The notes below the pieces were generated by a model. That model searched no databases and was not told the origin of the DNA. It saw only the letters and a list, made by a program, of their open reading frames with translations. A program made the translations under genes and the position numbers. This document shows positions 17,859 through 55,259 of a DNA stretch of 64,000 nucleotides, in pieces. Position 1 is the stretch's first letter. Every line of letters starts with the position of its first letter. The stretch spans positions 3,437,058-3,501,057 of the forward strand of contig JAUPFP010000026.1 of the NCBI GenBank assembly GCA_036925085.1. The letters run 5' to 3'. The DNA is from Brachycybe producta. Lineage: Eukaryota; Arthropoda; Diplopoda; Playtdesmida; Andrognathidae.

Positions 17859-17862
17859 TTAA

Positions 17863-18646
17863 GAGGCTACATCACTAAATTACTTCGAAAAAGCTCCGCA
17901 CGGAGAGCTAGCATCGTTTTTCTATTGAACCCATAGACCTAATTGTTAAAGGAAAAAATGTTAATTTTTAAAATACACAGTCACAGCGGCAATGTTTATT
18001 TTTCATATTTAAAGTTGTCCAATATTAAGTTTTCAAAGTGCAATGTGCACCTTAAATATATGCCGATCGAGTGATAGAATGACAAACAAATTGGTAAGTG
18101 CGGTTATATTTTTAAAAAGTATTTCAAAATCGCGAATTTCTAACTCTTATGTTAAACTCCATTGAGTACGCGCTCGTAAACAAAAAACATCTATTAAAAT
18201 GCTTGTAAATACCTAAAAATTAGTTTTAAAAAATCGCAAACCACAGTGAAGCCAACAGATTGGCGCACCTTCTGCTTTTTTTCGTGTTTTTTATTTTTTA
18301 GATCTATTTTTACGAGCAATTTTAATGTATGTTTTTTTTTTCTTATTTCGGCGTACTCAATGGGGTTTTAAATAAAAGTTAGAAATTCGCGATTTTGAAA
18401 TAGTTTTTAAAAATATAACCGCACTTACCAATTTGTTTGCATATATTTAAGGTGCACATTGCACTTTGAAAACTTTAATATTGGACAACTTTAAATATGA
18501 AAAATAAACATAATATTGCCGCCGCGACTGTGTATTTTAAAAATTAACGTTTTTCCTTTAACGTCAGTTCCATGGGCTCAATAGAAATACTTTGCTAGCG
18601 TGCTTTGCGGAGATTTTTCGAAGTAAATTAGTGATGTAGCAGCCTC
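17863..18646. mobile_element. Fold-back element, TTAA-flanked, copy 1 (intact)
   Basis: The left ~300 bp ('agaggctacatcac' onward) is repeated in reverse complement as the right ~300 bp ('gtgatgtagcagcctct'), and TTAA lies at both ends (17859-17862, 18647-18650). The centre carries poly-T/A blocks. Two more copies occur at 26172-27635 and 30168-30510. The long arms and TTAA target resemble non-autonomous piggyBac-type or fold-back transposons. Confidence 0.82.
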
Positions 18647-18650
18647 TTAA

Positions 18651-24960: not shown

Positions 24961-26167
24961 ATGCATTTAAGAAATTTGCTTTATAAAATATATTTAATAT
25001 ATTTCAACAGAAAGTTAATGCTTAAAAAATGTTAACTGAGTTTAGTAATATAATGATTTTGTATTTTAATATGTTCGGATATTATTAATGAAATCAATTT
25101 TATTTTGTATATCTTTAACTGGACTCCCTTATTATTCAATAAAACATAATTAACTGAAATGCATTTAGCTGAAGTGTAAACTAGCTACTGTACATGATTG
25201 CATGACATCATTACGGCTGTGCTAGAACAGATTGCAATTTTCAATGGGTTTACATCTTGAGGTTCTCACAATGCATTTTGCATGCTGCAGTTGGACCTCT
25301 TCGTCTCTCTGTCACAGAGGACTGACTGGTTGAGGAGTAATTTATCAATTAACAAAATAGGCAGTAAATTTGTTAATACATACATTATTACTGCACATTT
25401 CGTTATTCCTCGATGCGATTAGTTTAACAAACTGGTTTTAATTCAAAACCAAGATTTCTCACAGGCAAATGTTCCTAGCACTAAAATTTCGTTTGCTGGG
25501 CACACTTGTTTTTAGATTTCTCTATTTACACATTCAGTACTTGTGTCACATTCGGCATATGATAATATTTAGGGTTACGTGCAGCTTTTCGTCTTCATTT
25601 AACTTCTTAGTCAATTTCGACATTATTCATTCCTTAAATTCTAGTTCCAGTTTATTCTCTTGCACTTTATTTTGTACTTAAGCAAAAACACTGGTGTTTT
25701 TTCTTAAGTTTGCTATGTTTTTTATATTTGAAGAAAATGTGTCATTTCATATATTATTTTGTAGTTTAGTTTTATAAGATTTTTATTTCTTTTTTATAAC
25801 TTTAAAAAACGAACTTATGTGAATATAGTATTGATATTTGGTGGTGGGTGTGGAGGAATTTAAGTGAAAAATGTACAAATCCTTTTTTTTTTTTATTCAG
25901 AAATGCCACAATTAACATAGGTATGTAAATTTAGAACCTTTTGTACGAATTATATTGATGATAGATAATTAAAATGTTTTTTTTTGTATATTATAGTTTG
26001 AAGATTGTTGTTACTACGAGCTTCCTATACAATGTAGATTTATATACAGACGCAAATGAAGCAAGTGTTACTAAAGATAAAGCCCAAGTAGTTACGGTAT
26101 GCAAAGCTAATGTAAAAATACAAGTTCCAACATTACAAGTGTAATTGCCAATTTTACTTTTTGACTC
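24961..26167. other. Intergenic, no gene seen
   Basis: AT-rich. The short ORF at 25469-25681 is hydrophobic but has no recognisable family feature or exon context. Confidence 0.45.
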
Positions 26168-26171
26168 TTAA

Positions 26172-27635
26172 GATGCTACATCACAAAATTACTTCGAAAA
26201 GTCTCCGTAATGAGTGCTAGCATCGACCCAATGTTAATGAAAAAGAAAAAAATGTTAAAGAAAAAATGTTAATTTATAAAATACACAGTCACGGCAAATA
26301 TGTTTATTTTTCATATTTTAAGTTTTCCAATATATTAAGTTTTCAAAGTGCAATGTGCACCTTAAATATATGCTGATCGAGTGATAGAATGACAAACAAA
26401 TTGGTAAGCGCTAGGGTGGCAGTGATTTAAATCATGATTTAAATCGTGATTTAAATCAATTGATTTTTTTTAAAAAAATCAAATGATTTTTTTAAAAAAT
26501 ATTCATATTCATTTAAACATTTAAATTATACAATAAATAGAAAACAGTTCCCAGCATTTTTCTTTATGTTTATAAAAATAAAGTCGGGATGGTAGTCCTT
26601 TTGTTAATGCATCATTTTTGGGAAGATAGATAGATATGCTTGAGGAAGTATCCCCAAATGACTGATGGAAATCATTATAGGGACACATTGATATAAATAG
26701 CAATAGTAATCTATTTAAGAGCCTCTGAGGTAAACTGTGTTAAGTCACCAAATCTATATTTTACATGAAGAGTAATTTGAAAGTTTTCCTCTTCATTGAA
26801 GGAATAGGACTTAACATGGTATAAAACCATTTAGCAGCCAATGTGTAAAACTGTGGACTTAACACTGTTCGCCACTGATAAAACTTGACAATCTGTTTAA
26901 AAACACGAATTTTATATCGTATGAAGATGTAAAAAATCGTGTTTTTTTTAAAAAAAAGTGACTTAACACATTTTAACTCTGAGACACTGATTTGCTCTGG
27001 GAACTGAAAAGGCTGCAAAGCTCGTGTTTATGTTCAGAAATCAGAATGTTAAATTAAAAGTGCTTGAAACTTATTATTTTCAAATTTGAATGTTTCTTAG
27101 CATTTTTTTCTTATTTTGCAATTATTTTACTAACAACTTAACAATTAACAATGTTATTATTACTCATTTTTGCAGATATCTTAAAAAAAATTATTTCACA
27201 TAAATAAAAAAAATCTGATTTGATTTTTTTAAAAAAAATCAAAAAAATTAGCCACCCTGGTAAGCGCAGTTATATTTTTAAAAACCATTTCAAAATCGCG
27301 AATTTCTAACTTATGTTAAACTCCATTGAGTAAGAAAAAAACATCCATTCAAATGCTCGTAAAAATAATTTTAAAAAAACACATAGCCACACGTGCTGAT
27401 TTCTTTCTGGTTTTTTAAAATTATTTTTATGTATTTTATGAGCATTTTAATGGATGTTTTCTGCTCTTTGAAAACTTAATATTTTACAACTTTAAATATA
27501 AAAAATATATTGCCGCCGAGACATTGTATTTTAAAAACTAACGTTTCTTCTTTAACATCGGATCTATGTACTCAATAGAAAAACGATGCTAGCGCTCTGC
27601 ACAAGGATTTTTTAAAGTAATTTTGTGATGATGTC
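26172..27635. mobile_element. Fold-back element, TTAA-flanked, copy 2, interrupted
   Basis: The left arm starts 'gatgctacatcacaaaattac' after TTAA (26168-26171) and the right arm ends near TTAA at 27636-27639, matching 17863-18646. The left part is split by an 848-bp MITE at 26412-27259; removing it and one duplication restores continuity with copy 1 ('acaaattggtaagcgcagtt'). Confidence 0.75.
26412..27259. mobile_element. hAT-type MITE nested in the fold-back, TSD GTAAGCGC
   Basis: Ends TAGGGTGGC / GCCACCCTG with 8-bp duplications GTAAGCGC at 26404-26411 and 27260-27267. It begins with a run of self-complementary 'gatttaaatca' words and ends with A/T blocks. The minus-strand ORFs inside have no known motif. 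Confidence 0.82.
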
Positions 27636-28098: not shown

Positions 28099-31000
28099 TT
28101 ATTGACCGCCGAATTTAGCCGATTTGTTGTTAAACGGATATTTTGCTGCTTCGGACGACTTTAAGAATGTTGCGATAGCCGGAAGTGCCTAAAGATATAT
28201 ATAAAAAAAAAAGATAAAATGTGGAAATGACAATCAAAATACTTATCATTTATCAGAATTACCGCAACGCGGGCTTTGTAGTCCTTGAGATTGGAAAATC
28301 CTTCCAAAACGTCTTCTTGGAGAGCCGTAATCAACTCGAGATAAGCATAAGCGATGAAGTCGGCATAAGTCACGCTATCGCCAACGATGAACTGTTGTTT
28401 GCCCAAATAGTTTGACAGAAGTTTCAGATCCTTTGGAAGGTTAGTCAAGAAACTGCTTTTCAGTTCATCCTACAATAAAAAAAGTGTTGCCATTGTTACA
28501 AATTATTTCATTGGCGAAAAACAATACTGTTATATAATAGTTTATTATTCAATAGCAGAACTATCCGTTGAAATAAAACTTAAGGTGTGACCATTACGTT
28601 TTTTTTTATACTTATAAATCGTGTTCCTGGCGCAGCGTTACCATCGCTACGTGTCTTCACGTGGCCATGCGCCCATTGAGTTATAACAGTTAATTGAGAG
28701 AATTTTCCGGTACAAGTACTGTATGTAGGTTTTCAAAAGTATTTATTAAACAAAACTAGTTGTCTTTTTGAAACTTGATTAATAGATTAAGCGAGGAAGT
28801 CTCTCGAAACTCTTTTTCGTGACAATCTTTGTTCGATAAACAATCGTTTTATGACAGTTTTAAAACGCCGATTTTTTGGTTTTTCCTGTTATTGGCGTTA
28901 TAGAACTGTCATAAAACGATTTTTTTCAGAATAGATCATCACAAAAAGGGTTTCTTCGCTTCATTTATGTGCTATTTTGATGAACGGTGGAACAGCAGTA
29001 GGAACAGTTGGAAGGTGACGTTTAGTTATTAGTTATATTTAGCTTGTTGCAGGGGTCTGCGCTCTAGACCTCCGGCAAGAAGCTAAATTTAACGAAACCT
29101 AACCTTCCGACTGTTCTGCCGTTCATAAAAAATAGCACCCCTCTTTATTTATTCATCAGGTCTCGAAAAGACAATGAGTTTTGTTTAATAAATGCTTGTA
29201 AAGATCTACATACTGGTACCGGTAAATTCGCTTCTTGAACGTAGCCACGTCCATAGAGATCTAAGACAGTGGACATGTGAATTCACGTGTAACTCCAATC
29301 TAGTAGCATCATTTGTAATTAATTCTAATAAAAAAACCTATTGGTCACACTTTAACTATTAGTTTATTCCTTCGCTTTCTCAAATACACACATGCCTGGC
29401 CATAACGTCTATTGACACAAGAGAGTTGTTCACAAACACACACACACACACACTATTGCCGTTACAACTTACAAACTTCGGGTTGTAGCAAAGGTGAGTG
29501 GCACTGCTTTTTAAATCAGACAGTTGGTTTTCCATCATGTCCACTTTAGCCTTCTCCTCTTCTGTCGAACCAACTTGAATTTGAAAGGCAAACAAAAATG
29601 TCAAAAATGAACACGTTAATTCATTAATAACACAAACAAAAAATGATTTCTTTGCGAGGAAAAAAGGGGGGGGATTGGTTTGGTATTTTTACTATACCTA
29701 GGTCGTGTTTACGAGCAACGTGGCGCAGAATGGCGCCACTCTGCGTCAACTTCAGGTCCCCATCAATGTAATATGGAAGCTAAAACGATAACAAAGTCAG
29801 AATTCCTGTCATTCAACTATCTATATCACGTTTAAATTTAAATTTCGTCGAATGAAAAAATCAGCTGCTTTTCAACTGCTTTTTTCCTTTTGCTAGATGA
29901 AAGTTTGTGACGTCGGCGGGGTTGACAAAAAATTACAATTGTAATTTAGTCTGATAAACTGACAGGGATGATAGCAACCGTTCTCAATTTTTTGTCAACC
30001 CTTCTGACGTCACACAAACTTCCTCTTAGTTTAGGTCGAAATTTTTATTTTCACTTACTAAGTACCTTTCATAATTAACAATACAGTAGAATGTCGATTA
30101 TCGGAACTAATGTCAGACATGAACAGTTTCGATAATCAAAAGTTCACATAAGTCGAACTCCCATTAAGACGCTACATTACAAAATTACCTCGAAAAATCG
30201 CGGCGGCAATATGTTTATTTTTCATATTTAAAGTTGTCCAATATTAAGTTTTCAAAGTGCAATGTGCACCTTAAATATATGCTGTCCGAGTGATAGAATG
30301 ACAAAAAATTCTTAAGTGTGGTTATATTTTTAAAAAACTATTTAAAAATCACGAATTTCTAACTCTTATGTAAAACTCCACTGAGTACGAGCTCGTAAGC
30401 AAAAAAAAAACCATTAAAAATACGTAAAAATAATTTTAAAAAACCATAAATAAACCACAGTGAAGCAAACACATTGGCGCACGTGCTGATTTTTTTAAAG
30501 CGGAGAAAAGTAAAAAAAAAAAATAGAGGTGGGACGAATCCTAAATTTTCTTGAATCCTAAAAGGTTCTCGAATCCCTTGAATCCTGTATTATTCATTAA
30601 GAAGATACAAATAAATGAAATAATATTAAATATTAAATTATTAATGAGAAAAAAGTGTGGCACTCAGGGTCGCCACAAAGCGATATTGGTAAGCCGGGTA
30701 CCACCGAATTGCAAAGAATCGCCGGTTTTTTTTTTGTTAGTGAACGCTTCTATTTTTACTTCACGTCAGTGGAGTTAAAACGAATTTTTCCAAAGTTGTT
30801 AAGTTATTTTTTAAAGGTTAGGATTCGAAAGATTCGAAAGACAAAAAAAAGGCGGCAAAGATTCGATTTTTCAAACCTCTTAATATTTTTCAAGATTCGA
30901 GGATTCGAATGGCCCATCACATGGCCCCCCTTGCAAAGAAACTTTTTTATTTCCATAAGTAATATTTCTATAAGATTAAGTAAAAAAGAAATTTGTTCCG

Positions 31001-37840: not shown

Positions 37841-38209
37841 CTACATATCCACTTCAATATTCCTCTCTTGGATTATCGTATGACGCTGAATTGTACCTAC
37901 ATCATGCCCGCTCCGAAGTTGCATCGATCCTGATGGTTGCTGGGCTTCATACCAGGCCATCAGTTTCTCCCGTCTTGCAGCAGTCAAATTTTGAAGGGTG
38001 CCTTCAAGTGGATCTTCCATCTGGTTCGTATCGTCATTCTCCTGTGTCTTCGACTTCGATTTCAGCCTGCATTTCTTTCCTTTACCACCTGGTGTAGCTC
38101 CGACATCTTTGTTATTCTCTACTGGATCTGTTGTGAGGTACCCCGCACCTCCACCATTTTGTAACATCCCCGTTTCCGTAGGGTTAGTAGAGAGATCTCT
38201 GCTAGCCAT
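37841..38209 (-). pseudogene. Gag N-terminus starting inside the LTR (element B family)
   Basis: The frame opens at ATG 38209-38207, 50 bases before the LTR end, and reads [15 protein letters not shown], then through the primer site (NGGGAGY) into a Lys-rich, hydrophilic region, ending at a TAG next to the microsatellite after 122 codons. The same ATG and first 17 codons exist in the 3' LTR at 54479. Start inside the LTR is supported by the conserved frame through the LTR border; the protein has no folded domain I recognise. Truncated, so not functional alone. Confidence 0.65.
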
Positions 38210-38971
38210 CTAGAAGTGTCGAGTAGATGTTGATGATTAAGTCTTTCGGTCTATTGGCTCCTGCATTGCTTACTTAACCACCAGGGACACAAGGGTCAGT
38301 ACCTCAGGAGTCCAGAGGTAGAAAATAGCGTAGAGATGTCTTCTTACACGCGGCTGCTGGAGACTTCGTTGTCCGCTGGAAACATCGGCTAAGTGGCGGC
38401 TGTAATATTTAGTACCACTCCCATAAAATAACTGAGTCCACACATCAAATTCATTAGTTGAAATAATATCTTTTATTTACAATAAACAGGCAGTCCTGTA
38501 GATTGAGAGAGAGATATTTCGTATGTTCTGCTGCGTCGAAAGTATAAAATCGGATCTGTCTCTCAATCCACAGACTCTTGTATTTATCGTAATAACAAAG
38601 GCGCCAGGTGTGTCCAAGTCTCTTGGACACTCGGACCTAAAAGTGATCTATCAATTAACGAAAACGAAAACATCTATAAGATGTATAAAATGTAACAATA
38701 AAGAAGGATCTTCGTTTATCATTCTAATAACAATTTGTAAAGATTCTCACATCAAAGAGTTCTGCATCGTTGGTTCTTCTAGGATCTATCCTATTAAAAC
38801 CATCGATGCAGTCCTCTTGGCTATTCTTCTCATCTTGGAGGACAGGGAGTCATCGTCGTGATGGCCTCCCAGCCAACCCCAAGCATGAGGTGAGAACCTT
38901 TCAATACATCCGTGACTTATTTACAGCGTGGTTACGAAAACTGCTTAACCCTAAACGATAGATTCGTTACA
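37841..38971 (-). mobile_element. Truncated copy of element B family: 5' LTR plus start of gag
   Basis: The LTR 38160-38971 (812 bp, TGTAAC...GTTACA) matches the 830-bp LTR at 54430-55259. On the minus strand it is followed by a 3-base spacer, a primer-binding-site-like TGGTGGAGGTGCGGGGTACC (38156-38137) and about 300 bp of gag, then the copy ends at the (TA)n array. A second LTR is absent, so this is a 5' fragment. It supplies the part of the family that lies outside the window for the main copy. Confidence 0.82.
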
Positions 38972-40863: not shown

Positions 40864-43689
40864 CAGTGGCGTAATTTGGGGGGTGATTTGGGTGATACAT
40901 CACCCCCCCAGACTTACTATACATACCTCCTATAGCTGACCATTTTTTTAATCTATAAGACCATAGAGATGAGTGATCGATTAGATTCGCCTGTACTCCT
41001 ATACAGGAATAAGATTACAGGCGAATCCACTCGATTACTCACCTCAATGATGCTTTTCCAACACCACGTGGATACACACATTGAATATTCTCAGTTTCAT
41101 CAAAAATGAAAAAACGACACCCTACAATTTTGAACTTTTTTGCAAAGAAACCAAAAGTAGTAGCTGAAGAAAGAAATGATCCAGTTCCAGGACCAACAGC
41201 TCAAGCTGATTCCAGTAAAATTGAATCTTTTAATGATGGCAGTATAGACAAAATATGTGGACCAGTTCAAGAACCAACAACGTCTCAAGCCTATTCTAGC
41301 CAGGCTGAATTTTTCACATCAGAATCAGTTGCAGATTCGTATGATCTCTCTAACGAGTTGGACATTGGAAAATATGTTGGTAAATCAAGTTTATCAGTTG
41401 AGACTACTATTTCATTAATTAAGAATCCATGGAAGCCTGATAATAATTACAAATTCCCCAAAGGAGAAAGAAATTTGAGCTTTCAATTAAAATGGTTGTC
41501 AGAATACAACTGGTTGTTATATTCAGAAGTATCCCCGGGAGCATTTTGCAAATATTGTTTTATTTTCTAAAATAAATAGTTCTGGCAGAGGTCAAAACAA
41601 AAGCTTTGGCCATTTTGTAAATCAGCCATACACAAAATGGATCAAGGCTCGAAAAGCATTTGGAAATCACCAGGAATTGGCTTATCATAAAGATAGCATT
41701 TTATGTGCAAATGAGTTTCTTAAAATAAATGACTTTAGAAAACAAGATAATGTGTTGGTTCAACTGGATTCAGCAAGGAAACTTCAAGCCAAGAAAAATA
41801 GAGACAGACTTTGTTCCATAATTGAAACAATTATATTTTGTGGAACACAAGGCATTGCACTAAGAGGGCATGATGATTCCGGTCCATTGCAAGATTCTAC
41901 ACCAATTCATAATGATGGGAATTTTAGAGCACTTCTTCGAATGAGAGTTAATTGTGGTGACACTCTGCTCCTTGAACATTTACAAGAATCCTCGTTTACA
42001 TACATTTCTCCGGCTGCACAAAATGACCTCATTGAGTGCATTGGAATTGTGATTCAGCACAAGTTGATTGAACGTTTGAATTCAGCAAAATGCTTCAGTT
42101 TGGTTGCCGATGAGACAACAGATATTTCAGGTACAGAACAGCTCTCTGTGTGTGTCAGATATGTTGATTGTGATAAAGTTAGAGAAGACTTTCTTGGTTT
42201 TGTTGAAATGAAATCAACAACAGGCGAAGATCTTACAGACTCTTTAATCTCGTTCTTGCAAACTTTACATGTTGATCTACAATACATTAGAGGTCAAGGT
42301 TACGATGGAGCTGCTTCCATGAGTGGTAGATTCAAAGGAGTTCAAGCAAGAATCAGAGACAAAGTCAGAAAGGAAGCCATTTACGTGCACTGCTCTAGCC
42401 ATTCTTTGAATCTTGCACTAAGTGATTCTTGTGGAATTCCAGAAATACGAAATACATTGGGAACTATCGGTGAAGTAATAACGTTTATAAGAAAGTCTGC
42501 AGTTCGACTTGCAACTTTGAAGAGCATAGTCCAGTCAAAGTATCAAAATGCTCCAAAGTCACTTCGTCTATTAAAATATTGTGAAACTAGATTTATTGAA
42601 AGACACGATTCAATTTTACGGTTTGTAGAGCTATTTGATTGTATTGTGGAAACACTAGGTATAATTGAATGTGATGGGGATAGAGAGGCTGCTTCGAAGG
42701 CTCACAACTTTATTTTGGCTATTCTAAACTCAGGATTTATCGTCGCCATGTTTATCTGTGAAGAAGTACTCGCAACTACAGTTAACCTATCGCGAGGATT
42801 ACAAGACCCTCAATATGATTTAATTCAGGCTCTAAAAGGCATGGATAAATGTGTGGAATACCTGGACAGTTTAAGAGGCGATAGCCACACCCAATTCAGG
42901 TTTTTGTTTCAAAGATCAGAGAAATGTGCTACTGAAAATTTCGTGACAATTTCAATACCAAGAATTAATAAAAGGCAAACTCATAGAAGCAACATTCTTT
43001 CAGAATCAGTCGAGGAATACTACCGAAGAAATGTCTACATCCCATTTCTAGATCATATTTTATCAAATTTAAAAAGCAGATTTATGAATCACAGGAACAT
43101 TATTTTGGGCCTTCAGCATCTTGTACCAAAATTTGGAAGCAGTGAATATAATTTCGAGGATTTGGTTGAATTTTACTCGTCAGATTTAACAGAATCTTTA
43201 TGTACTGTTCGCACAGAAATAAATCTGTGGCTTAGTTCTTGGAAAGCTATTCCAGATGTGGAAAAGCCTGCCAATGCACTTGTATCACTTCTTCGGTGTG
43301 ATGAAACTATCTTTCCCAATGTTCGTAAACTACTTCAGATACTGTCCACTTTATCTGTATCATCTTGCACTCCTGAACGTACATTCTCAACCTTAAGAAG
43401 ACTAAAGAATTATCTCCGTAACTCTACAGGTCAAAGTCGTTTAACTGGCTTAGCCCTTATGAATATGTACAGAGATATTAATGTAGATATTAATACTGTA
43501 ATTGATATTTTTGCAGAGAAGAAATCTAGACGTTTAAATATTATACTCTGATTCTTATGTTTCTTATGTTCGTAGTTAACTAATAAAATGAAAGCTAATA
43601 CTTGGTAGGTAACGCTACTGTTTTAATTTTTAGGCTAGACAGTATGAGATCCATATCACCCCCCCAAAAATTTTTAAATTACGCCACTG
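40864..43689 (+). mobile_element. hAT transposon, 2.83 kb, TSD ATATGAAA
   Basis: Terminal repeats CAGTGGCGTAAT / ATTACGCCACTG, each next to a C/G-run block (ggggggtgat / atcaccccccc), with identical 8-bp duplications at 40856-40863 and 43690-43697. It encodes a transposase on the + strand with a single frame break. Apart from that break it looks complete, so it inserted fairly recently. Confidence 0.93.
41106..43551 (+). pseudogene. hAT transposase (ZMYM1/TTF-type finger family), one frameshift
   Basis: Two frames make up one gene: 41106-41570 (154 codons) and a frame open before 41677 up to 43551. Part one starts with the MKKRHPTILNFFAKK tail typical of this group and ends in the zinc finger at FCKYCFIF; part two resumes there in another frame (finger continues with HF and W..ARKAF), so one base is gained or lost near 41559-41570. 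In part two (numbered from 41677) VADETTDIS holds the first catalytic Asp (about 145), GQGYDGA the second (210), HCSSHSLNLAL the hAT CxxH motif, and TPERTFSTLRRLKNYLRN near the end the Glu and dimerisation region. It would cut and paste hAT ends. An error in the assembly could explain the break. Confidence 0.9.
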
Positions 43690-44508: not shown

Positions 44509-45597
44509 TGTTAGGTGCTCATGAAAATAATAAAAACACCTAACATGAACACCTAAACATGGTCCCACCAAACAGAACTAATAAATAAAAACCCCAATTA
44601 TATAAAAATAATAATTTTAAACTTGCACAAATGCAAGCATCCAAATATACAAAAATAAGAAAAAATATAAAAACAAGATAAAATTTTACAAAATAGGGGG
44701 ATTAAAGATAAAGATGTTTAAAGATCAAAAACAGGCTAAATAAGGACAAAAACAAAAAAATAAGATAACATCAACTGAATAGCTGAAAAACACAAAATTA
44801 CATGACTGGAAATAATGAAAACATAGCAATGTTCAAAGGACAAATCAGAATAGGTCCCAAAATAACCAAAAAAAACCATATATCACAAAGACAGAAAAAC
44901 ACAGTAATTAAGGAAAGAAAAATGATTATGATAGATTACAACACATTAGGAAAAAACAAAAACTTAATGGTCAAAAAAGGACAAAGTAAAGTAGGTCCCG
45001 AAAAGAAAATAGAATTGGGTCCCAAGTCTGAATTTTTCAGAAAAACGAAACAAAAAATAGAAGTTTGAAAAAGAAGTTTTAGACAGTGGGTTTCGAGATT
45101 TGTTTGGGAAAGGTTCTGGTTTTGATTTTTGGTATTTTGATTTTTGGGAGTTAGTAAGATTTTTTGGGAAAGTTAGTTTTAGGAGTTAGTTAATTTTGGG
45201 GAAGTTTGTATGTTTTGGGGAAGTTTAGGTTTAGGAAGTTTGTGGTCTACATTTCTGAAGTTGGTGAAGTGCCTGAAGAAATTGTTGGAAGACAGCAAGG
45301 AACAAAAAACAGTAAGACCACTTTAATCCATTTTTAAAACGGCCATACTCATTGCACAGCTCTTACACTTGTTTTATATATACCATTTATTACACACCTA
45401 TTTTTATCAAAAGAAAAACTTATCTATTTTAACCTAACCATTTTGTATTCTAGAATATTTGATAAATAAAAATCCATTTTGTTAAAAAATATATTTTTTC
45501 GGTCCGATTTGTCATTGAAGCCTTCACTGGCTTAAAGAACCTGGTTTCATTCATCTCTGTCCCTTAAAATTAAAAAACAAAAAAGGGGCGGGTAACA
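44509..45597 (+). repeat. 5' LTR of element A
   Basis: 1089 bp, TG...CA with 5-bp terminal inverted repeats (TGTTA/TAACA). Near the start is a hairpin-like 'tgttaggtg...cacctaaca'. AATAAA occurs at about 45465-45470, fitting a poly(A) signal before the R/U5 end. The 88-codon frame at 44802-45068 is present in both LTRs and is not a gene I can support. Confidence 0.95.
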
Positions 45598-45601
45598 CAT
45601 C

Positions 45602-45620
45602 TGGCGCAGTCGACAGGATT
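45602..45620 (+). promoter_or_regulatory. Primer binding site, tRNA-Ser type, of element A
   Basis: TGGCGCAGTCGACAGGATT, four bases after the LTR, is complementary to the 3' end of a tRNA ending CGACTGCGCCA, as in arthropod tRNA-Ser. Several insect Gypsy elements use the same primer. The matched primer was recalled by family, not aligned. Confidence 0.75.
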
Positions 45621-45735
45621 ATTTAAAATTATTGGATTAGTTCCCAAGACAGGATTTTAAAGTTTTTTTTTTTCAAGATTCGAAGATTACATTGTTTATT
45701 TACAGGACTTAGGTCTTGAATAATTTTTTTCTAAA

Positions 45736-46083
45736 ATGAGTCCCCGAAAGGAAAATCAAAATAACTTCGGAAAAAAGAGGGTTAAAATAACTTTAAAAAC
45801 TAAAAAGGGTCCTTATGAAAGAAAGGCAATTAACAATAGTAGTGAGAAATATATAAATACTATAGAAAATGGATGTACCAAGCCAATGATACTCAATAAC
45901 CAATCAATGCATGATGCAACACCAGTTTCAATACCAAGTAATATCAGTTTGGTTGAGGAAGATTGGGAAGATGAAACATTATCTTTGGAAGAAATTCAGC
46001 AACTAGCTAAAGCAGCTGAACAAAAAAGAATTTATGGTAGGGTTCTAGAAGATAATGAGTTAAGGAGAATTTTTAGAGAATAA
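45736..46083 (+). CDS. Element A first ORF, 115 aa, unknown
   Basis: First ATG frame after the primer site. A basic N-terminal half (RKENQNNFGKKRVKI) is followed by an acidic C-terminal half (EEDWEDETLSLEEIQQLAKAAEQ). It could be a leader or matrix-like piece of Gag, or an accessory protein. It stops 489 bases before the Gag-like start. No family recognised. Confidence 0.45.
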   Translation: MSPRKENQNNFGKKRVKITLKTKKGPYERKAINNSSEKYINTIENGCTKPMILNNQSMHDATPVSIPSNISLVEEDWEDETLSLEEIQQLAKAAEQKRIYGRVLEDNELRRIFRE

Positions 46084-46571
46084 GGGGTCCTTTTTTAATT
46101 TTTGGTTGTTACTCTGTGAGTGTGTTGTTACTCTTCACATAACTTGAAACAATTTTTGGGGAGTTATTTTCAGGATCTTTTCATTAAAATTAAGAATATA
46201 TAGTTGGGTTGGTTTATTTTATTAGAAGAAATATGAAGTTTAGTATTTTGAAATTTTTATTTGAGTTGAAGATTTAAATTTTATGAATAATCTAAATAAA
46301 TGGAATAAATTTTTGAGCAATGTTAAAAATATTTTTGAGTTCTAAAGGTTTTAAGGGTTATGATTTAAATTTGGCATGTGCATGTTATGGCCGATTAAGT
46401 AATCTTTAAGTGCATGTGCAAAATTTAGTGCTAATTTCTGCTCGCTCCCACACATACACGCACGCTCCCATACAATACGTCCCAGAAAAGTGGACTATAC
46501 ACAATTGGGTGTGGGTCTTTAAGTTTGTGGGGTTTGTAAGGGGACACTTTACAGGAAACAAAGCAGGCAAC

Positions 46572-47125
46572 ATGGAGCATCGAGAAGACAATGAAGCTAC
46601 CACTTCAGGTGTGGGGCACAATCAAAATGTGAATCATCCTGTACACAGTAGCTTGATCCCACATTTTTCAGGAGATGAAAAGGGTCCATCTGTCAAAGAG
46701 CTGTTTAAGCAGACTGAAAGTATTGCTAGACTAGCTAATTGGACAGAGGAATTTCAGATTATTTTAATTAAATCAAAATGCCGGGGTCTTGCTGCAGGAT
46801 TTCTTAGAGATTACCCAGAGGTAAAACAGCTAACAAGGCTAGACGAGCTAAAAGCTATAATGATTCAGCGTTTTGAGCCAATAGAACCCAAATTTGTATC
46901 GATGCAAAAGTCCGTGGAGGAAAAACAAAGCAGTTCGGAATCAGCCATCAAATACATTTTACCAGTGAGAATCCCACTGAGGATGAAATAGTTATGAGGG
47001 ATGGGATGGTACAAAATCAAATAATTAAAGGATTACAACCAAAGATTAAAAGATTCATACTGTCCAGGAATCCAAAAGATTTAGATGAGACAATCAAAAT
47101 TATATTATCAGAAGAAGAAAATTAA
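46572..47125 (+). pseudogene. Gag-like gene of element A, with a frame break
   Basis: From the ATG at 46572 the frame reads MEHREDNEATTSG and then a capsid-like segment (HFSGDEKGPSVKELF, LKAIMIQRFEP) typical of Gypsy/retroviral Gag. It ends at 46991, but the similarity continues in another frame (VMRDGMVQNQIIKGLQPKI) to a TAA at 47123-47125. The shift lies at about 46940-46985. No CCHC knuckle was seen after it. The longer ATG at 46410 is possible but its extra 54 residues look unlike Gag. Role: particle assembly and RNA packaging, if the break is bypassed or supplied in trans. Confidence 0.65.
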
Positions 47126-48699
47126 AAAACTTGTCAATGCAAAATATGGTTTGAATGTCATAAATGAGGAATCTGAGGCAAATTGAGGAGAGATAATTGA
47201 GCAGAGGATGTCTAGGTTAGAAGAACAGCACAAAGCGATACTTGCAGAGATATATGAAATGTTTGAACATTTAGCAAACATTAGTCAAGAAAAGTAATTG
47301 TAGAAAAAGGTGAAGAGTTGAGAATCAATGAATTAAAGTAGCAAATGGGTGGGATGTCCTGTAAAGACAATTTAAGGTAAGAGTGTGGAGGCTCGAAGAA
47401 ATAAAATTAAGAGGTTTAGGAAAAGGGTTTTATAATTAGAAGAAATGAGTAATAGATGTATTTCTAAGGTACACAAATTGACACATCAATGGTGGTCAAA
47501 ATCAAAAAAATATTTTCATACTAAATGTAGAAAATTTGAGACCAAAGGGACAAAAATGGCAAATCAATTACCATTCCCACAGCCATTGACAAGTCAATTA
47601 AAAGAGAAAAGGTGTACTAGAGAAAGGTTTGAATACTAAGGAAATTAGCTGTTGAGAAAAAGAAAAAGGTTTAGTGGACATTGGTGGAATTGGAAATTAA
47701 GTGGTAATTAGAAATTTAGTGGAAATTGGAAATTGAAAATTTAGTGGAAATTGGAAATTTAGTGGAAATTGGAAATTTAGTGGAAATTGGAAATTTAGTG
47801 GAAATTGGTACATTTGATGATGTGTGTCAGACAACAAGCCACAAAATCAAAATTTGTCAATATTCAAAAGGGAATTTTGAAGAGGAACCAAGGAGAGTTC
47901 ACGGGAATTTTGAAGAAGAACCAAAGAGAGTTCAAAGGAATTTTGAAGAAGAACCAAGGAGAGTTCAAGGGAATTGTAAAGAGGAACCAAGGAGAGTTCA
48001 AATGAATTTTGCAGATAAGATTCTTGATACATTCGATTGGGCACTAAATGTCATAGCGCTAGAAAGTATGCATCAGTCTCTAAATAAGAAAAAAATAGTT
48101 AGGATCAAGGGAAATTTGAAAATAGTAAAATGTAGAATTCACATGTGAAATAAAATAATTCTTAGGGGGTAGGAAGCCCTATGGAATTCAGGGAATCAAC
48201 ACAATTGAAATGTCAATGGTGAGGCTATATGGTGGTAATTGAAAAAAATGAAACAAAATTCATTCTTACAAACCATGGATGTGAGTCAAAATGATAAAGG
48301 GATAATTCATGGAATAAGAGTCCATATGCCCACAATGTGCTCTAAGTCTAAGCCAAACAGGGATTACAATGGAGCACGAATCCATTCCCAAATACCATTG
48401 ATAAGTCAATAAGTGAGATATCCGAGAAAACAGAAGTTGAAATAAAAGTAAAATGAGAAACTAGAGTGATTAGAATCAGAGAAAAAATGTGATATGCTGA
48501 AAATGAAAAAATAAGGGTTTCAGCAAATAACGATTTCAGCAAACGGGAAGGCTGAAAAATGACAATAAATAAGAGGTAAATTAGTATAGTCTCTAAAAGA
48601 AGAAATAAGAGGGAGAAAGCATATGAGAAACTAACTTTATAGATATAACTGATTAATGTGGGAAGATGAGTTCATTTATATTTTTGCAGAAACATCAAA
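47126..48699 (+). other. Element A region where pol is missing
   Basis: About 1.57 kb between gag and env. It has no reverse transcriptase, integrase or protease motif in any frame. It holds two tandem arrays (47690-47815 and 47870-48003) and a secondary polypurine-like run 'cttagggggtagg' near 48158-48170, similar to the real tract at 52454. The 140-codon frame at 47726-48148 is repeat-driven. Confidence 0.6.
47690..48003 (+). repeat. Two tandem arrays inside element A
   Basis: First, a ~17-bp unit 'ggaaatttagtggaaatt' repeated about six times (to about 47815). Second, a 33-bp unit starting 'gggaattttgaagaagaacc' repeated four times (47870-48003). The second keeps frame for NFEEEPRRVQG-type repeats, which may be chance or a remnant of a structural repeat. 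Confidence 0.85.
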
Positions 48700-50367
48700 A
48701 TGGAAGTCATGAAGTTGGTGGGATTTTTCGTACTACTGGTAATAGTGAAATCAAAGGAACAGTACGAAGTTGAAAAGTGCCGATGGGTGGATGGAAGGAA
48801 AGTGTGCTACACCGAAACTACAAACGACCCAAAGCAATACTCAAGAAAAATATGTCCAACAGATGGATGTCATGGATGTATTGTAAAATGGGTCACTATG
48901 GTGAAAGTTGATGACAAACAAGGACCAGCAAATGAGTTTCAAATCAGGCAAAATAAAACAGAGAAAGGTGAAGATGAAATGTATGTGTGTGAAAATAGAG
49001 GTTTACCTTGTACCTGTACAAATAACAGTGCTTGTTCAGGAACTGAGCAATACTGTAAAGCTACAAAGCATTGTGCTGAAAAGGCGACCGATTGCCACTG
49101 CGATATTACGCGGGCCAATACAAAGTTAATACATATCGATATTGGTGGGCAGGAATCCGAAAACTTTGAAATAATATCCTATCTTGAATGCTATTTCAAT
49201 ACTTCCGAATTCCTGGCACAGGCTCAAAGTAGCCAAATTGGGAGAAAATTACAGGGGGAGGAAGCATTTAACATTGATGATGGAAAGAACTTCATAAAAG
49301 TTAATGACCCAGTAATCACAGTCAGTGCTGAAGGCACTATTATATTGCGAAAAGATGGAGTTGAAAGAAGTTCACATGTAGGGAAAAATAAACAGATTAT
49401 AATGGACCCGGAACTGGGCATGGAATCTGGTACTCTTCATGTGATCTTCATTTCAAAAGATGGGGAGCTGATGGAAGGAAAGTTCCAAATTGAGGGAAAA
49501 AACATATGCCATCGAATAAAGTGTATATTGTGTTTTGAATTTATAAATAACCTTGATTGCATGCCAACTTACATAGTGTATGGAATTGTGATTTCACTAA
49601 TGGTTTTAACTAGTATTTTTATATTATATGTCCGTATAGTTATTTTAAGCATATGGAACCTTATTAAATTTATTGTCTACATTATCATGTTGTTCTATCG
49701 ATGTGCAAAAAAATGTCTTAGAGTCTCAATGGTGATCGGGGTTGTTAGTGGAAAAATAGCAAAAAATCAGGTGAAAAAGGTACAAGACAAATACGAAATT
49801 TTAGAGGCTGGAACAGTGCCAAAAGTTGGAACAGTGCAAAAAGTCAACCCAACAAGTTTGTTGACAATAACTATAATTATAGGAATTTTGCTAACTTTTG
49901 CCTCAGGTACCCTGGCCAGGTGCACGGAGCATAAGCTGATAAAATCAACTATAACAGAATGTAAAGAAACCAAAATGGGTCAAAAATGCTCCCTATCAAC
50001 CACGGTCCAGTTGACTCTAACCAATTTGGAGTACACAGCATGTTTATGGTTCACAGATCATTTAGAAACATATGTTGCAGGTTTAGATATAACATTTGAA
50101 AGTGTAAATTGTGATTGGCAGACCCAGAGATTGTACTATACATTTCCTACCAAGCTTTTTACTTTGAATCAAGTAGCTTGTCCTCAAAATAAGTACTGTG
50201 GTTGGGGTGAACATTGTCACCCTGATTACAAATTTGAGTCCTTAACAAAAGAATCCTTAGATTGGCCAGGAGTTACTGATTGTTTTCCTGGAGATTCTGG
50301 AAGTGTGTCATTTGGCAGGTTACCAACCTTGTCATCATTACAGGTGGTATCTCAAACCAGAGTTTAA
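48700..50367 (+). CDS. Env-like glycoprotein of element A, N-terminal part (Gn plus start of Gc), bunyavirus-type
   Basis: 555 codons. It begins with a signal peptide (MEVMKLVGFFVLLVIVKS), then a Cys-rich ectodomain with N-glycosylation sites (N84KT, N108NS, N166TS), a transmembrane region at about 290-335 followed by a cytosolic stretch, a second hydrophobic segment (386-402) ending GTLA that could act as an internal signal peptide, and then a second Cys-rich ectodomain. This Gn-TM-tail-signal-Gc order is that of bunyavirus M-segment precursors. The second ectodomain, with a compact Cys/Trp/Gly cluster around 494-528, resembles the phlebovirus G2 fusion family (PF07245), known as env of some LTR elements. 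The frame ends in an unrelated tail; the Gc continues in the next frame. The role would be membrane entry of particles. Family call by architecture. Confidence 0.72.
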   Translation: MEVMKLVGFFVLLVIVKSKEQYEVEKCRWVDGRKVCYTETTNDPKQYSRKICPTDGCHGCIVKWVTMVKVDDKQGPANEFQIRQNKTEKGEDEMYVCENRGLPCTCTNNSACSGTEQYCKATKHCAEKATDCHCDITRANTKLIHIDIGGQESENFEIISYLECYFNTSEFLAQAQSSQIGRKLQGEEAFNIDDGKNFIKVNDPVITVSAEGTIILRKDGVERSSHVGKNKQIIMDPELGMESGTLHVIFISKDGELMEGKFQIEGKNICHRIKCILCFEFINNLDCMPTYIVYGIVISLMVLTSIFILYVRIVILSIWNLIKFIVYIIMLFYRCAKKCLRVSMVIGVVSGKIAKNQVKKVQDKYEILEAGTVPKVGTVQKVNPTSLLTITIIIGILLTFASGTLARCTEHKLIKSTITECKETKMGQKCSLSTTVQLTLTNLEYTACLWFTDHLETYVAGLDITFESVNCDWQTQRLYYTFPTKLFTLNQVACPQNKYCGWGEHCHPDYKFESLTKESLDWPGVTDCFPGDSGSVSFGRLPTLSSLQVVSQTRV

Positions 50368-51403
50368 AGACATTTTTGAAGTCAAACGAATTGTTAGTAT
50401 GAAATGCCAACCACAAATTAAGGCAATTTTCAAAAACAATGGGACGGAAACAGAATACATAATAACTGCAAGTAGAAATGTCCCTGATGAATTTCATATT
50501 GAAGTTATTGGTACCTTTGACCAAGCCACAGATATCATATCCAAACACCTGATAACAAGAGTTGGGCAGAAAGGTGAGGCATATTTGGACACAGCTGCTG
50601 AATTTCATAGACCTATGAGAGGGCAAATAGGAGATGTACAGTCTGGCGAAGTCACATTCAATGATTTTATATTTGATAAGAAAATGGTTGAGTGTCAATT
50701 CTATGAAACAAAAATGACATGTACTAAACAACAATCGTATCTTGAAATGATGTTAACCAGTAAACGAAATTTATTGCCACTGTCACTAACAAATCACAAA
50801 ATGCATATTGAGGAAGGAATGCATGGTCAATTAAAATCCACCTTGATTACCTCAAGCCCTGTGGTAGTATCCATATCAATTGGCAAATATGATGTGATGA
50901 TTCACACCATACAAGTGTGTCCAAAGATACTTAAAATAGTCAAACATCAAGGGTGCTATTCCTGCTCAATATTAGCATTAATTGTGATTGAAGCCTTAAG
51001 CACATGTTTACCTGGGGAAGTGCTAGTAACATTTGAAAATATTAAAATGAGTACTCGATCCATAGTTCTTTCTACCAGTGCTCAACAGTTTGAGATACAA
51101 ATAAGCATTGATAAGAGGTGTATTAATGACAAAATGTGTTTAAGGTCAAAGGTTGGTGTTTCCTGTGAAGCCTTTATTGGTTGTTTTGAAGAACCACAGT
51201 TGAACTTTCAGGAAAATCAAGATATTCGAGTCTCATCAAAAGGGGGATTTGCCCCAGGTGATGACATCAAAATCTCGCCATTATTTCCAGATTTCTGGGG
51301 TACTTTAAGCTCTATGCTCTATATGCCATTAATGATTGGGTTAGGCATACTAGGATCATGTTTTGTATTTTCGTGTGTATTAAGCTTACTACGCATGCGA
51401 TAA
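50303..51403 (+). CDS. Env-like glycoprotein of element A, C-terminal part (rest of Gc)
   Basis: Overlaps the previous frame by 65 bases in the +1 frame; the Cys-rich ectodomain continues without a gap in composition from about residue 7 on, so the ATG at 50303 is unlikely to be a true start. It has many Cys (including CYSC and a cluster near CINDKMCLRSKVGVSCEAF) and ends in a transmembrane helix with a short basic tail (VLSLLRMR), as expected for class II fusion-type Gc proteins. The break between the two frames lies within roughly 50303-50340. No standard slippery sequence was seen there, so mutation is as likely as programmed shifting. Confidence 0.68.
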   Translation: MCHLAGYQPCHHYRWYLKPEFKDIFEVKRIVSMKCQPQIKAIFKNNGTETEYIITASRNVPDEFHIEVIGTFDQATDIISKHLITRVGQKGEAYLDTAAEFHRPMRGQIGDVQSGEVTFNDFIFDKKMVECQFYETKMTCTKQQSYLEMMLTSKRNLLPLSLTNHKMHIEEGMHGQLKSTLITSSPVVVSISIGKYDVMIHTIQVCPKILKIVKHQGCYSCSILALIVIEALSTCLPGEVLVTFENIKMSTRSIVLSTSAQQFEIQISIDKRCINDKMCLRSKVGVSCEAFIGCFEEPQLNFQENQDIRVSSKGGFAPGDDIKISPLFPDFWGTLSSMLYMPLMIGLGILGSCFVFSCVLSLLRMR

Positions 51404-52465
51404 AGAAGGTTCAACAAAAATCAGATCTTAACAACCATAGGGTAACCACAGAAACACTACATAATCATATTGCATATTCTTACTTGAGTGTTCTATTAAC
51501 GTAACTGAATATTATGATGTATTTTAAAAAGTCAAATGTTATGTGAATGTACCACAATATACTCAAAAATGATACTGATTACTTATGTTAACAATGTGTA
51601 ATTGTCAAGAATTATCTATGTATGTATGAAACTTATGAATAATTTAGAAGGGTAAGAATTGTGCAATCAGAGATGTGACAGGTAGTCCCGTAAGGCTTAG
51701 ATAACTAAACAAAAGGATACCCCTCAAGTGTGAGTGTGTAGGGAAATGACATGATTACCATGATGTCTTTGGTTAAACAAAAAACAAGGAGTGCCAACAA
51801 CAAAGGACACTTAAATGAGGGTGATGAATCAAGGATACAACGGTCGGTACACACAAATGCACCAAAGGACGAAACCCGGCAGAGGCCTACACAACAATAA
51901 CATAAAGATGCAACAGTGGAGCCAAGTTCATCAACAAAACCGGGACATTCCAAAACTTAAGGTCATTTATAAACCATGAAGTTTGAAAACCTGAGTTCAC
52001 CATTAAGCAATGGACATGCCAAGGAGAACTAACCTTCAAAATGTTATGAAAAACCTCATCAAACATGAAGGGAGACACTTAATCCTCATGTTAGAGCATT
52101 GCACAACAGCCAATCGCTTGGGGTTTTGTGACAACAGAAGGATAGGCTGCATCATCAAACGTGCTGGTTAGCATATAGACAGTGCTTGTAAAACGGCATC
52201 TAGTGTTGTGTTGTGAACTATCGTCAACTGAAACCGGGACCAAAAACAACTGAGTTTTACAGTGAAATGATGGTCAACATTGTGTGGTAGACATCTAGGA
52301 AAACAACCCATAAAAAGACAATATGCAACAAGAACATTGTTCAATGGGTTCAATTCTACAATATAGCACACCAAGGAATTTCGTCAGTTCATTCGTAACC
52401 AAAGAACAATCATGGAAATCAGTCAAAATTAGAGAAAGAGATAAAGAAGATTTAGGGGGTAGGGA
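51404..52465 (+). other. 3' untranslated part of element A with polypurine tract
   Basis: No coding frame was supported. Ends in AGGGGGTAGGGA (52454-52465) directly before the 3' LTR, the expected plus-strand primer. Several minus-strand frames here are chance. Confidence 0.7.
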
Positions 52466-53554
52466 TGTTAGGTGCTCATGAAAATAATAAAAACACCTAA
52501 CATGAACACCTAAACATGGTCCCACCAAACAGAACTAATAAATAAAAACCCCAATTATATAAAAATAATAATTTTAAACTTGCACAAATGCAAGCATCCA
52601 AATATACAAAAATAAGAAAAAATATAAAAACAAGATAAAATTTTACAAAATAGGGGGATTAAAGATAAAGATGTTTAAAGATCAAAAACAGGCTAAATAA
52701 GGACAAAAACAAAAAAATAAGATAACATCAACTGAATAGCTGAAAAACACAAAATTACATGACTGGAAATAATGAAAACATAGCAATGGTCAAAGGACAA
52801 ATCAGAATAGGTCCCAAAATAACCAAAAAAAACCATATATCACAAAGACAGAAAAACACAGTAATTAAGGAAAGAAAAATGATTATGATAGATTACAACA
52901 CATTAGGAAAAAACAAAAACTTAATGGTCAAAAAAGGACAAAGTAAAGTAGGTCCCGAAAAGAAAATAGAATTGGGTCCCAAGTCTGAATTTTTCAGAAA
53001 AACGAAACAAAAAATAGAAGTTTGAAAAAGAAGTTTTAGACAGTGGGTTTCGAGATTTGTTTGGGAAAGGTTCTGGTTTTGATTTTTGGTATTTTGATTT
53101 TTGGGAGTTAGTAAGATTTTTTGGGAAAGTTAGTTTTAGGAGTTAGTTAATTTTGGGGAAGTTTGTATGTTTTGGGGAAGTTTAGGTTTAGGAAGTTTGT
53201 GGTCTACATTTCTGAAGTTGGTGAAGTGCCTGAAGAAATTGTTGGAAGACAGCAAGGAACAAAAAACAGTAAGACCACTTTAATCCATTTTTAAAACGGC
53301 CATACTCATTGCACAGCTCTTACACTTGTTTTATATATACCATTTATTACACACCTATTTTTATCAAAAGAAAAACTTATCTATTTTAACCTAACCATTT
53401 TGTATTCTAGAATATTTGATAAATAAAAATCCATTTTGTTAAAAAATATATTTTTTCGGTCCGATTTGTCATTGAAGCCTTCACTGGCTTAAAGAACCTG
53501 GTTTCATTCATCTCTGTCCCTTAAAATTAAAAAACAAAAAAGGGGCGGGTAACA
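52466..53554 (+). repeat. 3' LTR of element A
   Basis: 1089 bp, same length as the 5' LTR. One substitution was noticed on reading both (the 88-codon frame differs at residue 11, Phe versus Val). Ends at TAACA before the TA array. Confidence 0.95.

Positions 53555-55259
<1,705 letters not shown>

What the first reader, a model, noticed from the sequence alone, without database searches (positions are those of the whole stretch)
44509..53554. Young LTR element that carries gag and a bunyavirus-like glycoprotein but no pol
Seen: two equal 1089-bp LTRs, primer site, polypurine tract, gag-like and env-like genes, and 1.6 kb between them with no enzyme motif in any frame. Known: phlebovirus-type glycoproteins have been captured by some LTR elements of invertebrates, and pol-less elements can be moved in trans. 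Inference: this is a recently mobile element that packages itself and keeps an entry protein while borrowing replication enzymes. Keeping env while losing pol is the reverse of the usual order of decay.
Basis: partly seen in the sequence, partly recalled or inferred. Interest (0 to 1): 0.88.

Follow-up and report, generated by a model that had tools for sequence, protein, structure and literature searches.

The report
Pol-less chimeric LTR element, broken env
A recently inserted jumping element carries a virus-derived entry gene but no copying enzymes; it turns out to be one of a small family of patchwork copies with broken genes that most likely are moved by relatives in the same genome, so it looks like a passenger of other elements rather than a self-packaging one.

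Summary
The anatomy is largely real: 1,089-bp LTRs (1088/1089 identical), a tRNA-Ser(AGA) primer site, a polypurine tract, a phlebovirus-type Gn-Gc glycoprotein (PF07245) and no pol. The structure is not unique in the window's own 295-Mb genome. Three copies at different sites (C26 = window, C27, C108) share the pol-less interior and the same gag break, and each env is broken in its own way. Four relatives with this LTR carry pol sequence (C35, C3, C11, C1:131); C35 has 99.9% the same broken gag beside an open RT-RNase H-integrase stretch. A second, about 70%-related family has ~900-codon open env frames, and in the one copy read (C61) open gag and pol stretches. The window element is a patchwork: LTR, env and 3' UTR match pol-bearing C3 at 95-100% except one LTR stretch (84%), while the leader-gag-middle block is foreign to it. 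Best reading: a non-autonomous chimeric Ty3/gypsy derivative moved in trans. Self-packaging and a kept entry protein are not supported. A pol-less, env-bearing LTR family is already in print (TelKA2n, PMC5408684).

The parts
44509..45597 (+). 5' LTR, begins TGTTAG, ends GTAACA
   Evidence: 1088/1089 identical to the 3' LTR; of the 30 LTR loci held I tested 24: the same start in 24, the same end in 23 (L030 was matched only to LTR position 1058)
45602..45620 (+). primer-binding site for tRNA-Ser(AGA)
   Evidence: complement of the 3' end plus CCA of tRNA-Ser(AGA); 23 exact genomic matches to the pattern (backward control 0), 3 of 3 fetched are called tRNA-Ser(aga) by ARAGORN
45657..46385 (+). 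729-bp leader block with a 115-codon frame (45736-46083), in the pol-less copies and not in the C35 or C3 copies
   Evidence: full length only at C26, C27 and C108 (98-100%), 8 further partial matches, e.g. C51 at 89%; absent from the held C35 and C3 pieces; no Pfam family over its cut-off
46572..46988 (+). gag 5' part, open frame of 139 codons; broken beyond
   Evidence: frame pieces; C35 99.9% identical without gaps over 46572-47300; no Pfam family of its own; the C3 homologue is weakly Retrotrans_gag, E 9e-4, under the cut-off
46989..47429 (+). rest of gag in changed frames with an internal stop; no CCHC knuckle found
   Evidence: 99.9-100% to C35 up to 47429
47430..47948 (+). region in whose place C35 has the zinc-knuckle end of gag and pol; here 18-bp and 33-bp tandem repeats
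47949..48607 (+). sequence that follows the pol frame in C35; holds a pol-tail remnant (48005-48061) and a PPT-like TTAGGGGGTAGG at 48162
   Evidence: 98.6% to L044 646-1304; remnant blastp E 1e-8; PPT-like expected 0.0003 times by base composition, also in C27, C35 and C108
48672..48689 (+). splice-acceptor-like site 10 bases before the env ATG
   Evidence: second best of 497 AG sites by a simple matrix of recalled frequencies
48700..50364 (+). env piece 1: N-terminal signal-like stretch, Gn with hydrophobic anchor region, internal signal, first part of Gc
   Evidence: PF07245 E 1e-13; Gn stem like PDB chain 7x6u, E 0.0017; hydrophobic stretches
50303..51403 (+). env piece 2: rest of Gc with C-terminal membrane anchor, in a different frame
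   Evidence: PF07245 E 2.1e-10; hydrophobic stretch at residues 337-365
51404..52465 (+). 3' untranslated region ending in the polypurine tract
   Evidence: about 97% identical in C3, C11, C27, C35 and C108; tract before the 3' LTR
52466..53554 (+). 3' LTR

Best explanation
The element is a recently inserted, non-autonomous, chimeric derivative of an envelope-bearing Ty3/gypsy element. Shown: its LTRs, primer site, 3' UTR and env are those of a family that includes pol-bearing copies in the same genome; the leader-gag-middle block (about 45657-48607) is foreign to the C3 relative and lacks pol; gag and env are both frame-broken; three copies at different sites share this interior. Inferred: its RNA is made from its own LTR, packaged by Gag of relatives, copied by their reverse transcriptase primed with tRNA-Ser at the intact primer site, and inserted by their integrase, which sees the same LTR ends; the patchwork arose by template switching between co-packaged RNAs. 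Env arrived or was refreshed by that switching and is decaying, not serving entry.
For: LTR pairs: C26 1088/1089, C27 1088/1088; C108 516/516 over what is left of its true 3' LTR. The three pol-less copies have different flanks: a TA repeat (C26), ordinary sequence (C27), a GAAGTT repeat (C108). Target duplications of 4 bp are clean in C27 (GTTA), C35 (CACG) and C3 (ATAG) and in 8 of 12 solo LTRs; those of C26 and C108 fit 4 bp but are ambiguous in repeats. tblastn with the neighbouring gypsy pol against the 70 loci then held finds pol in pieces of C35, C3, C11 and C1:131 and none in the pieces of C26, C27 and C108. C35: 1008 open codons with RVT_1, RNase H and rve. The 30 bases inside the 5' LTR, primer site included, are identical in the five copies whose 5' end was held (C26, C27, C35, C108, C3); TTAGGGGGTAGGGA precedes the 3' LTR in C26, C27, C35 and C11, one base different in C3. 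The first gag break is shared by C26, C27, C35 and C108: 98-100% over 520-729 bases without gaps. Mosaic: C3 is 95-100% over env but 68-78% over gag; C35 and C27 are 99-100% over gag, 68-73% over the Gn middle and 98-100% again from about 49.7 kb. gag in the pol-less pair C26/C108: 2 synonymous, 8 non-synonymous changes (dN/dS 1.07); Gn between C26 and C3: 12 and 5 (0.10).
Against: No expression, packaging or transposition was measured. No copy of the close family that I read has gag, pol and env all open (C35 has the broken gag, C3's pol is interrupted; C11 and C1:131 were read in part), so the helper is not identified; the second family is a candidate, but its LTR ends were not read. Only one of the three pol-less copies has an unambiguous target duplication. 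The window's env has no stop in about 890 codons, which by itself would fit recent constraint. The LTR search scored 40 of 49 candidates, so copy counts are lower bounds. 73 bases of C27 and 3 of C108 between held pieces were not read.
Confidence: 0.84

Rival explanations
1. One reading: a self-packaging, env-keeping pol-less element under selection to keep gag and env.
For: env has no stops in two long pieces and a 3-base period; an older pol-less relative at C41, with no room for pol between gag and env, has a 562-codon open Gn-Gc frame.
Against: The gag break is shared by 3 of 3 pol-less copies, and gag dN/dS is near 1 in the one informative pair. env is broken in 3 of 3: frame break (C26), stop (C108), lost or replaced parts (C27). 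C41 has a stop inside PF07245 too. env was exchanged with pol-bearing copies.
Confidence: 0.06
2. Simple one-off deletion of pol in this single copy.
For: C35 has the same gag to 47429 and the same sequence from 47949, with pol between.
Against: C27 and C108 share the pol-less interior and a 729-bp leader block that C35 and C3 lack.
Confidence: 0.03
3. Assembly error: the breaks or the loss of pol are artefacts of the assembly.
For: The env break is seen in the window copy only: C35 is open through that point and C108 is in one frame there apart from a stop. C108 also shows a suspicious 2.6-kb duplication.
Against: The first gag break is shared by four loci without gaps and the pol-less interior by three.
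Confidence: 0.06

Closest known systems
TelKA2n, non-autonomous family of the rotifer Adineta vaga (PMC5408684, passages read)
   Different: Env of the TelKA clade is paramyxovirus F-like; here it is phlebovirus Gn-Gc-like, and the copy is a patchwork with gag and env both broken
Atlas virus and other nematode belpaoviruses (PMC9094657, abstract and passages read)
   Same: Phlebovirus-type Gn-Gc env at the 3' end of an LTR element
   Different: BEL/Pao with one intact Gag-Pol-Env frame; here the relatives have gypsy-type pol and the window copy has none
Cer elements as described in a review (PMC5962544, one passage read)
   Different: No pol-less form is mentioned in the passage
Insect errantiviruses such as 17.6, 297 and gypsy (features recalled)
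   Same: 4-bp target duplication, tRNA-Ser primer in some, env as third gene from spliced RNA
   Different: Their env is baculovirus-type (PMC5962544 passage), not class II phlebovirus-type
Pol-less LTR elements of plants (TR-GAG, LARD; listing and starts of abstracts, otherwise recalled)
   Same: LTRs, primer site and PPT without pol, moved in trans
   Different: No env

Membership tests
LTR retrotransposon, recent insertion | paired near-identical LTRs, TG..CA ends, primer site, PPT | tested here: met
LTR retrotransposon, recent insertion | target-site duplication of this copy | tested here: inconclusive
   TATA on both sides, but inside a TA repeat; clean 4-bp duplications in C27, C35, C3 and 8 of 12 solo LTRs
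Ty3/gypsy (Metaviridae) | own gypsy-type RT, RNase H and integrase | tested here: not met
   none in the window copy; pol-bearing C35 has RVT_1, RT_RNaseH, H2C2, rve and Integrase_p58_C, so the window copy is a derivative of, not itself, a complete gypsy element
Non-autonomous LTR retrotransposon (TelKA2n-like) | several pol-less copies plus a pol-bearing relative with matching cis signals | tested here: met
Non-autonomous LTR retrotransposon (TelKA2n-like) | movement in trans observed | not testable with these tools
   needs expression or packaging data
Phlebovirus-type Gn-Gc envelope | PF07245 match, Gn-like part upstream, membrane anchors | tested here: met
Phlebovirus-type Gn-Gc envelope | open frame through the fusion domain in this copy | tested here: not met
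   frame break inside PF07245
Endogenous belpaovirus (BEL/Pao) | BEL-type pol | tested here: not met
   no pol in the window copy; the relative read has gypsy-type domains

The most novel reading that the evidence does not exclude
Pol-less, env-bearing gypsy derivatives form a long-lived satellite lineage: they keep refreshing env by template switching with helpers because carrying env in the shared particle pool favours their spread between cells, and the older pol-less copy at C41, with a 562-codon open Gn-Gc frame, is an earlier member.
Probability: 0.09. Interest if true: 0.75.

Novelty: new member of a known kind. Interest (0 to 1): 0.42.

Why it matters
It is a clear natural case of LTR elements that look trans-mobilised and were assembled by recombination, with donor families present in the same genome, so env exchange between retroelements can be traced copy by copy. 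It also shows phlebovirus-type Gn-Gc glycoproteins on a backbone with gypsy-type pol, in several near-identical copies. [quoted passage not shown] Among the titles listed in my searches (one search found none) I noticed none that names a pol-less element with this envelope type; most listed papers were not opened.

Tried and rejected
Protein-database searches with env piece 1, env piece 2 and the gag piece gave no relatives, nor did scans of viral contigs or phage records. Single-sequence structure predictions of the gag piece (mean pLDDT 40.5) and env piece 2 (36.1) were too poor to search with. The gag pieces hit no Pfam family over its cut-off, nor PHROGs. An intron as the cause of the env break was considered and rejected because only about 30 bases lie between the two matched parts. 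In one search my frame for the first Gc part was wrong and the script then failed; those rows were dropped and redone. The C108 'pair' of full LTRs (1108/1109) was rejected for dating: the last LTR and its upstream flank are a 2,609-bp copy of the first, and the true 3' LTR is cut after 516 bases. In one search, 5 of 15 second-family copies lay in the opposite orientation and were not compared.
Full report
Names. C26 is the window copy (C26:3481566-3490611); C27, C35, C108, C3 and C11 stand for the copies at C27:2997956, C35:783929, C108:42430, C3:5316180 and C11:4218378; C1:131 for that at C1:13093672.

Observation. The window holds two LTRs of 1,089 bp (44509-45597, 52466-53554), 1088 of 1089 identical, in a TA microsatellite. 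Four bases inside the 5' LTR lies a primer site (45602-45620) complementary to the 3' end of tRNA-Ser(AGA): the matching pattern occurs 23 times in the genome, its backward control never, and 3 of 3 stretches fetched are called tRNA-Ser(aga). A polypurine tract abuts the 3' LTR.

Coding content. env-like sequence lies at 48700-51403 in two frames. Both pieces hit PF07245, E 1e-13 for profile 1-128 and 2.1e-10 for 140-308, so the break falls inside the Gc fusion domain. The part before Gc resembles the stem and anchor of a solved 'Envelopment polyprotein' chain (7x6u), E 0.0017; that this is a bandavirus Gn is recalled. Hydrophobic stretches fit a Gn anchor, an internal signal before Gc and a Gc anchor. 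A splice-acceptor-like site sits 10 bases before the env ATG, rank 2 of 497 AG sites by a matrix of recalled frequencies. gag is open for 139 codons from 46572 and then continues in changed frames with a stop; no CCHC motif was found. The relative C3 is open over the first break, to the end of the piece read. There is no pol, but 48005-48061 resembles the end of the C35 pol frame, 15 of 19 residues.

Genome survey. The window lies in G000 (295.3 Mb, 442 contigs). PF07245 has 83 matches there and none in the 14 control genomes. The LTR has 71 matches, with 40 of 49 candidates scored. Of seven loci of this LTR family whose interiors I read wholly or in part, three show no pol (C26, C27, C108) and four do (C35, C3, C11, C1:131); an eighth (C1:8152154-8164770) was not settled. 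C35 carries a 1008-codon open stretch with RVT_1, RNase H and integrase beside a gag 99.9% identical to the window's broken one. C3's pol is interrupted and is 99.0-99.2% identical to C35's where both exist.

Shared structure. The 729-bp leader block with the 115-codon frame is full length only in C26, C27 and C108, and the interior across the pol gap is shared by the same three. Their flanks differ: a TA repeat, ordinary sequence, a GAAGTT repeat. Target duplications are 4 bp: GTTA (C27), CACG (C35), ATAG (C3) and 8 of 12 solo LTRs; the solo LTRs at C13 (two), C15 and C19 did not match. The three pol-less env genes are broken differently: a frame break (C26), a stop (C108), and loss or replacement of the Gn start and of a Gc part (C27).

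Mosaic. In 200-base steps C3 matches the window at 95-99% in the LTR except 84% at 45109-45308, shows no match or 68-78% through leader, gag and middle, and 95-100% from 48.5 kb to the end. C35 and C27 match at 99-100% through gag and 94-100% after the pol gap, lack the Gn start, fall to 68-73% at 49.1-49.5 kb and rise again to 98-100%. These are marks of template switching; the mechanism is inferred. C35 itself looks like such a product: window-type gag up to 47429, then zinc knuckle and pol of C3 type, then window-type sequence again.

Selection. Gn, window versus C3: 12 synonymous, 5 non-synonymous; versus C11: 18 and 9. The second Gc part gives 5 and 5 versus C3 and, the other way round, 0.5 and 11.5 with a stop versus C11. 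gag, window versus C108: 2 and 8. By the window's env would gain about 1.4 stops per 1% of neutral change and has none, so its constraint ended recently; recombination from pol-bearing copies explains that without selection on pol-less ones, but does not exclude such selection.

Older relative and second family. At C41 gag, middle and env lie so close that pol has no room; gag is 79% like the window's and env is open for 562 codons up to a stop; no LTR was found for it. At C61 the pieces read show a gag frame with CCHC knuckles and Retrotrans_gag (E 4e-4, under the cut-off), a 1146-codon pol stretch and an 897-codon env frame. Ten of 15 sister copies could be compared in the env region and are 97.8-99.9% identical to it. 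Gag and pol of the sisters and the LTR ends of this family were not read.

Interpretation. The element works, by inference, as a passenger: own promoter, primer site and ends; Gag, RT and integrase from relatives. It is not a self-packaging element with a working entry protein. Env-bearing pol-less families are known (TelKA2n, PMC5408684, passages read), and phlebovirus-type env on LTR elements is known (Atlas, PMC9094657, abstract and passages read; Cer elements, PMC5962544, one passage read).

Noticed in passing
[quoted passage not shown] its pol is about 35-38% identical in protein to the long matches in the window family's relatives.
   Followed up: partly
41106-43551 (+): hAT-type transposase (DUF4371 and hAT dimerisation domains in 41677-43548).
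   Followed up: no
45736-46083 (+): 115-codon frame of unknown function without stops in C27 and C108 too, and open in a relative outside the LTR family at C51 (L073; 11 synonymous, 18 non-synonymous changes): possibly captured from another repeat or gene.
   Followed up: partly
48162: Internal copy of the polypurine-tract core TTAGGGGGTAGG, also in C27, C35 and C108 and not in the tested pieces L041, L042, L043, L049, L072 and L015: a central PPT or a relic of an earlier 3' end.
   Followed up: partly
L020, L021, L038 (C108): This copy sits in a GAAGTT minisatellite; a stretch of array plus LTR is present twice (2609 bp, 99.9%), and the 3' LTR is cut after 516 bases: unequal exchange or an assembly duplication.
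   Followed up: yes
L048-L063, L071: Second envelope-bearing Ty3/gypsy family with phlebovirus-type env, at least 11 near-identical copies in the env region (reference plus 10 compared).
   Followed up: partly
17859-18650: Long imperfect palindrome (78%) with partial relatives at 26166-26411 and 30198-30496: a foldback or MITE-like repeat.
   Followed up: no
38156-38971 and 54426-55259: Dispersed repeat of about 830 bp, 82% identical, the second copy lying between the microsatellite and the neighbouring gypsy element.
   Followed up: no
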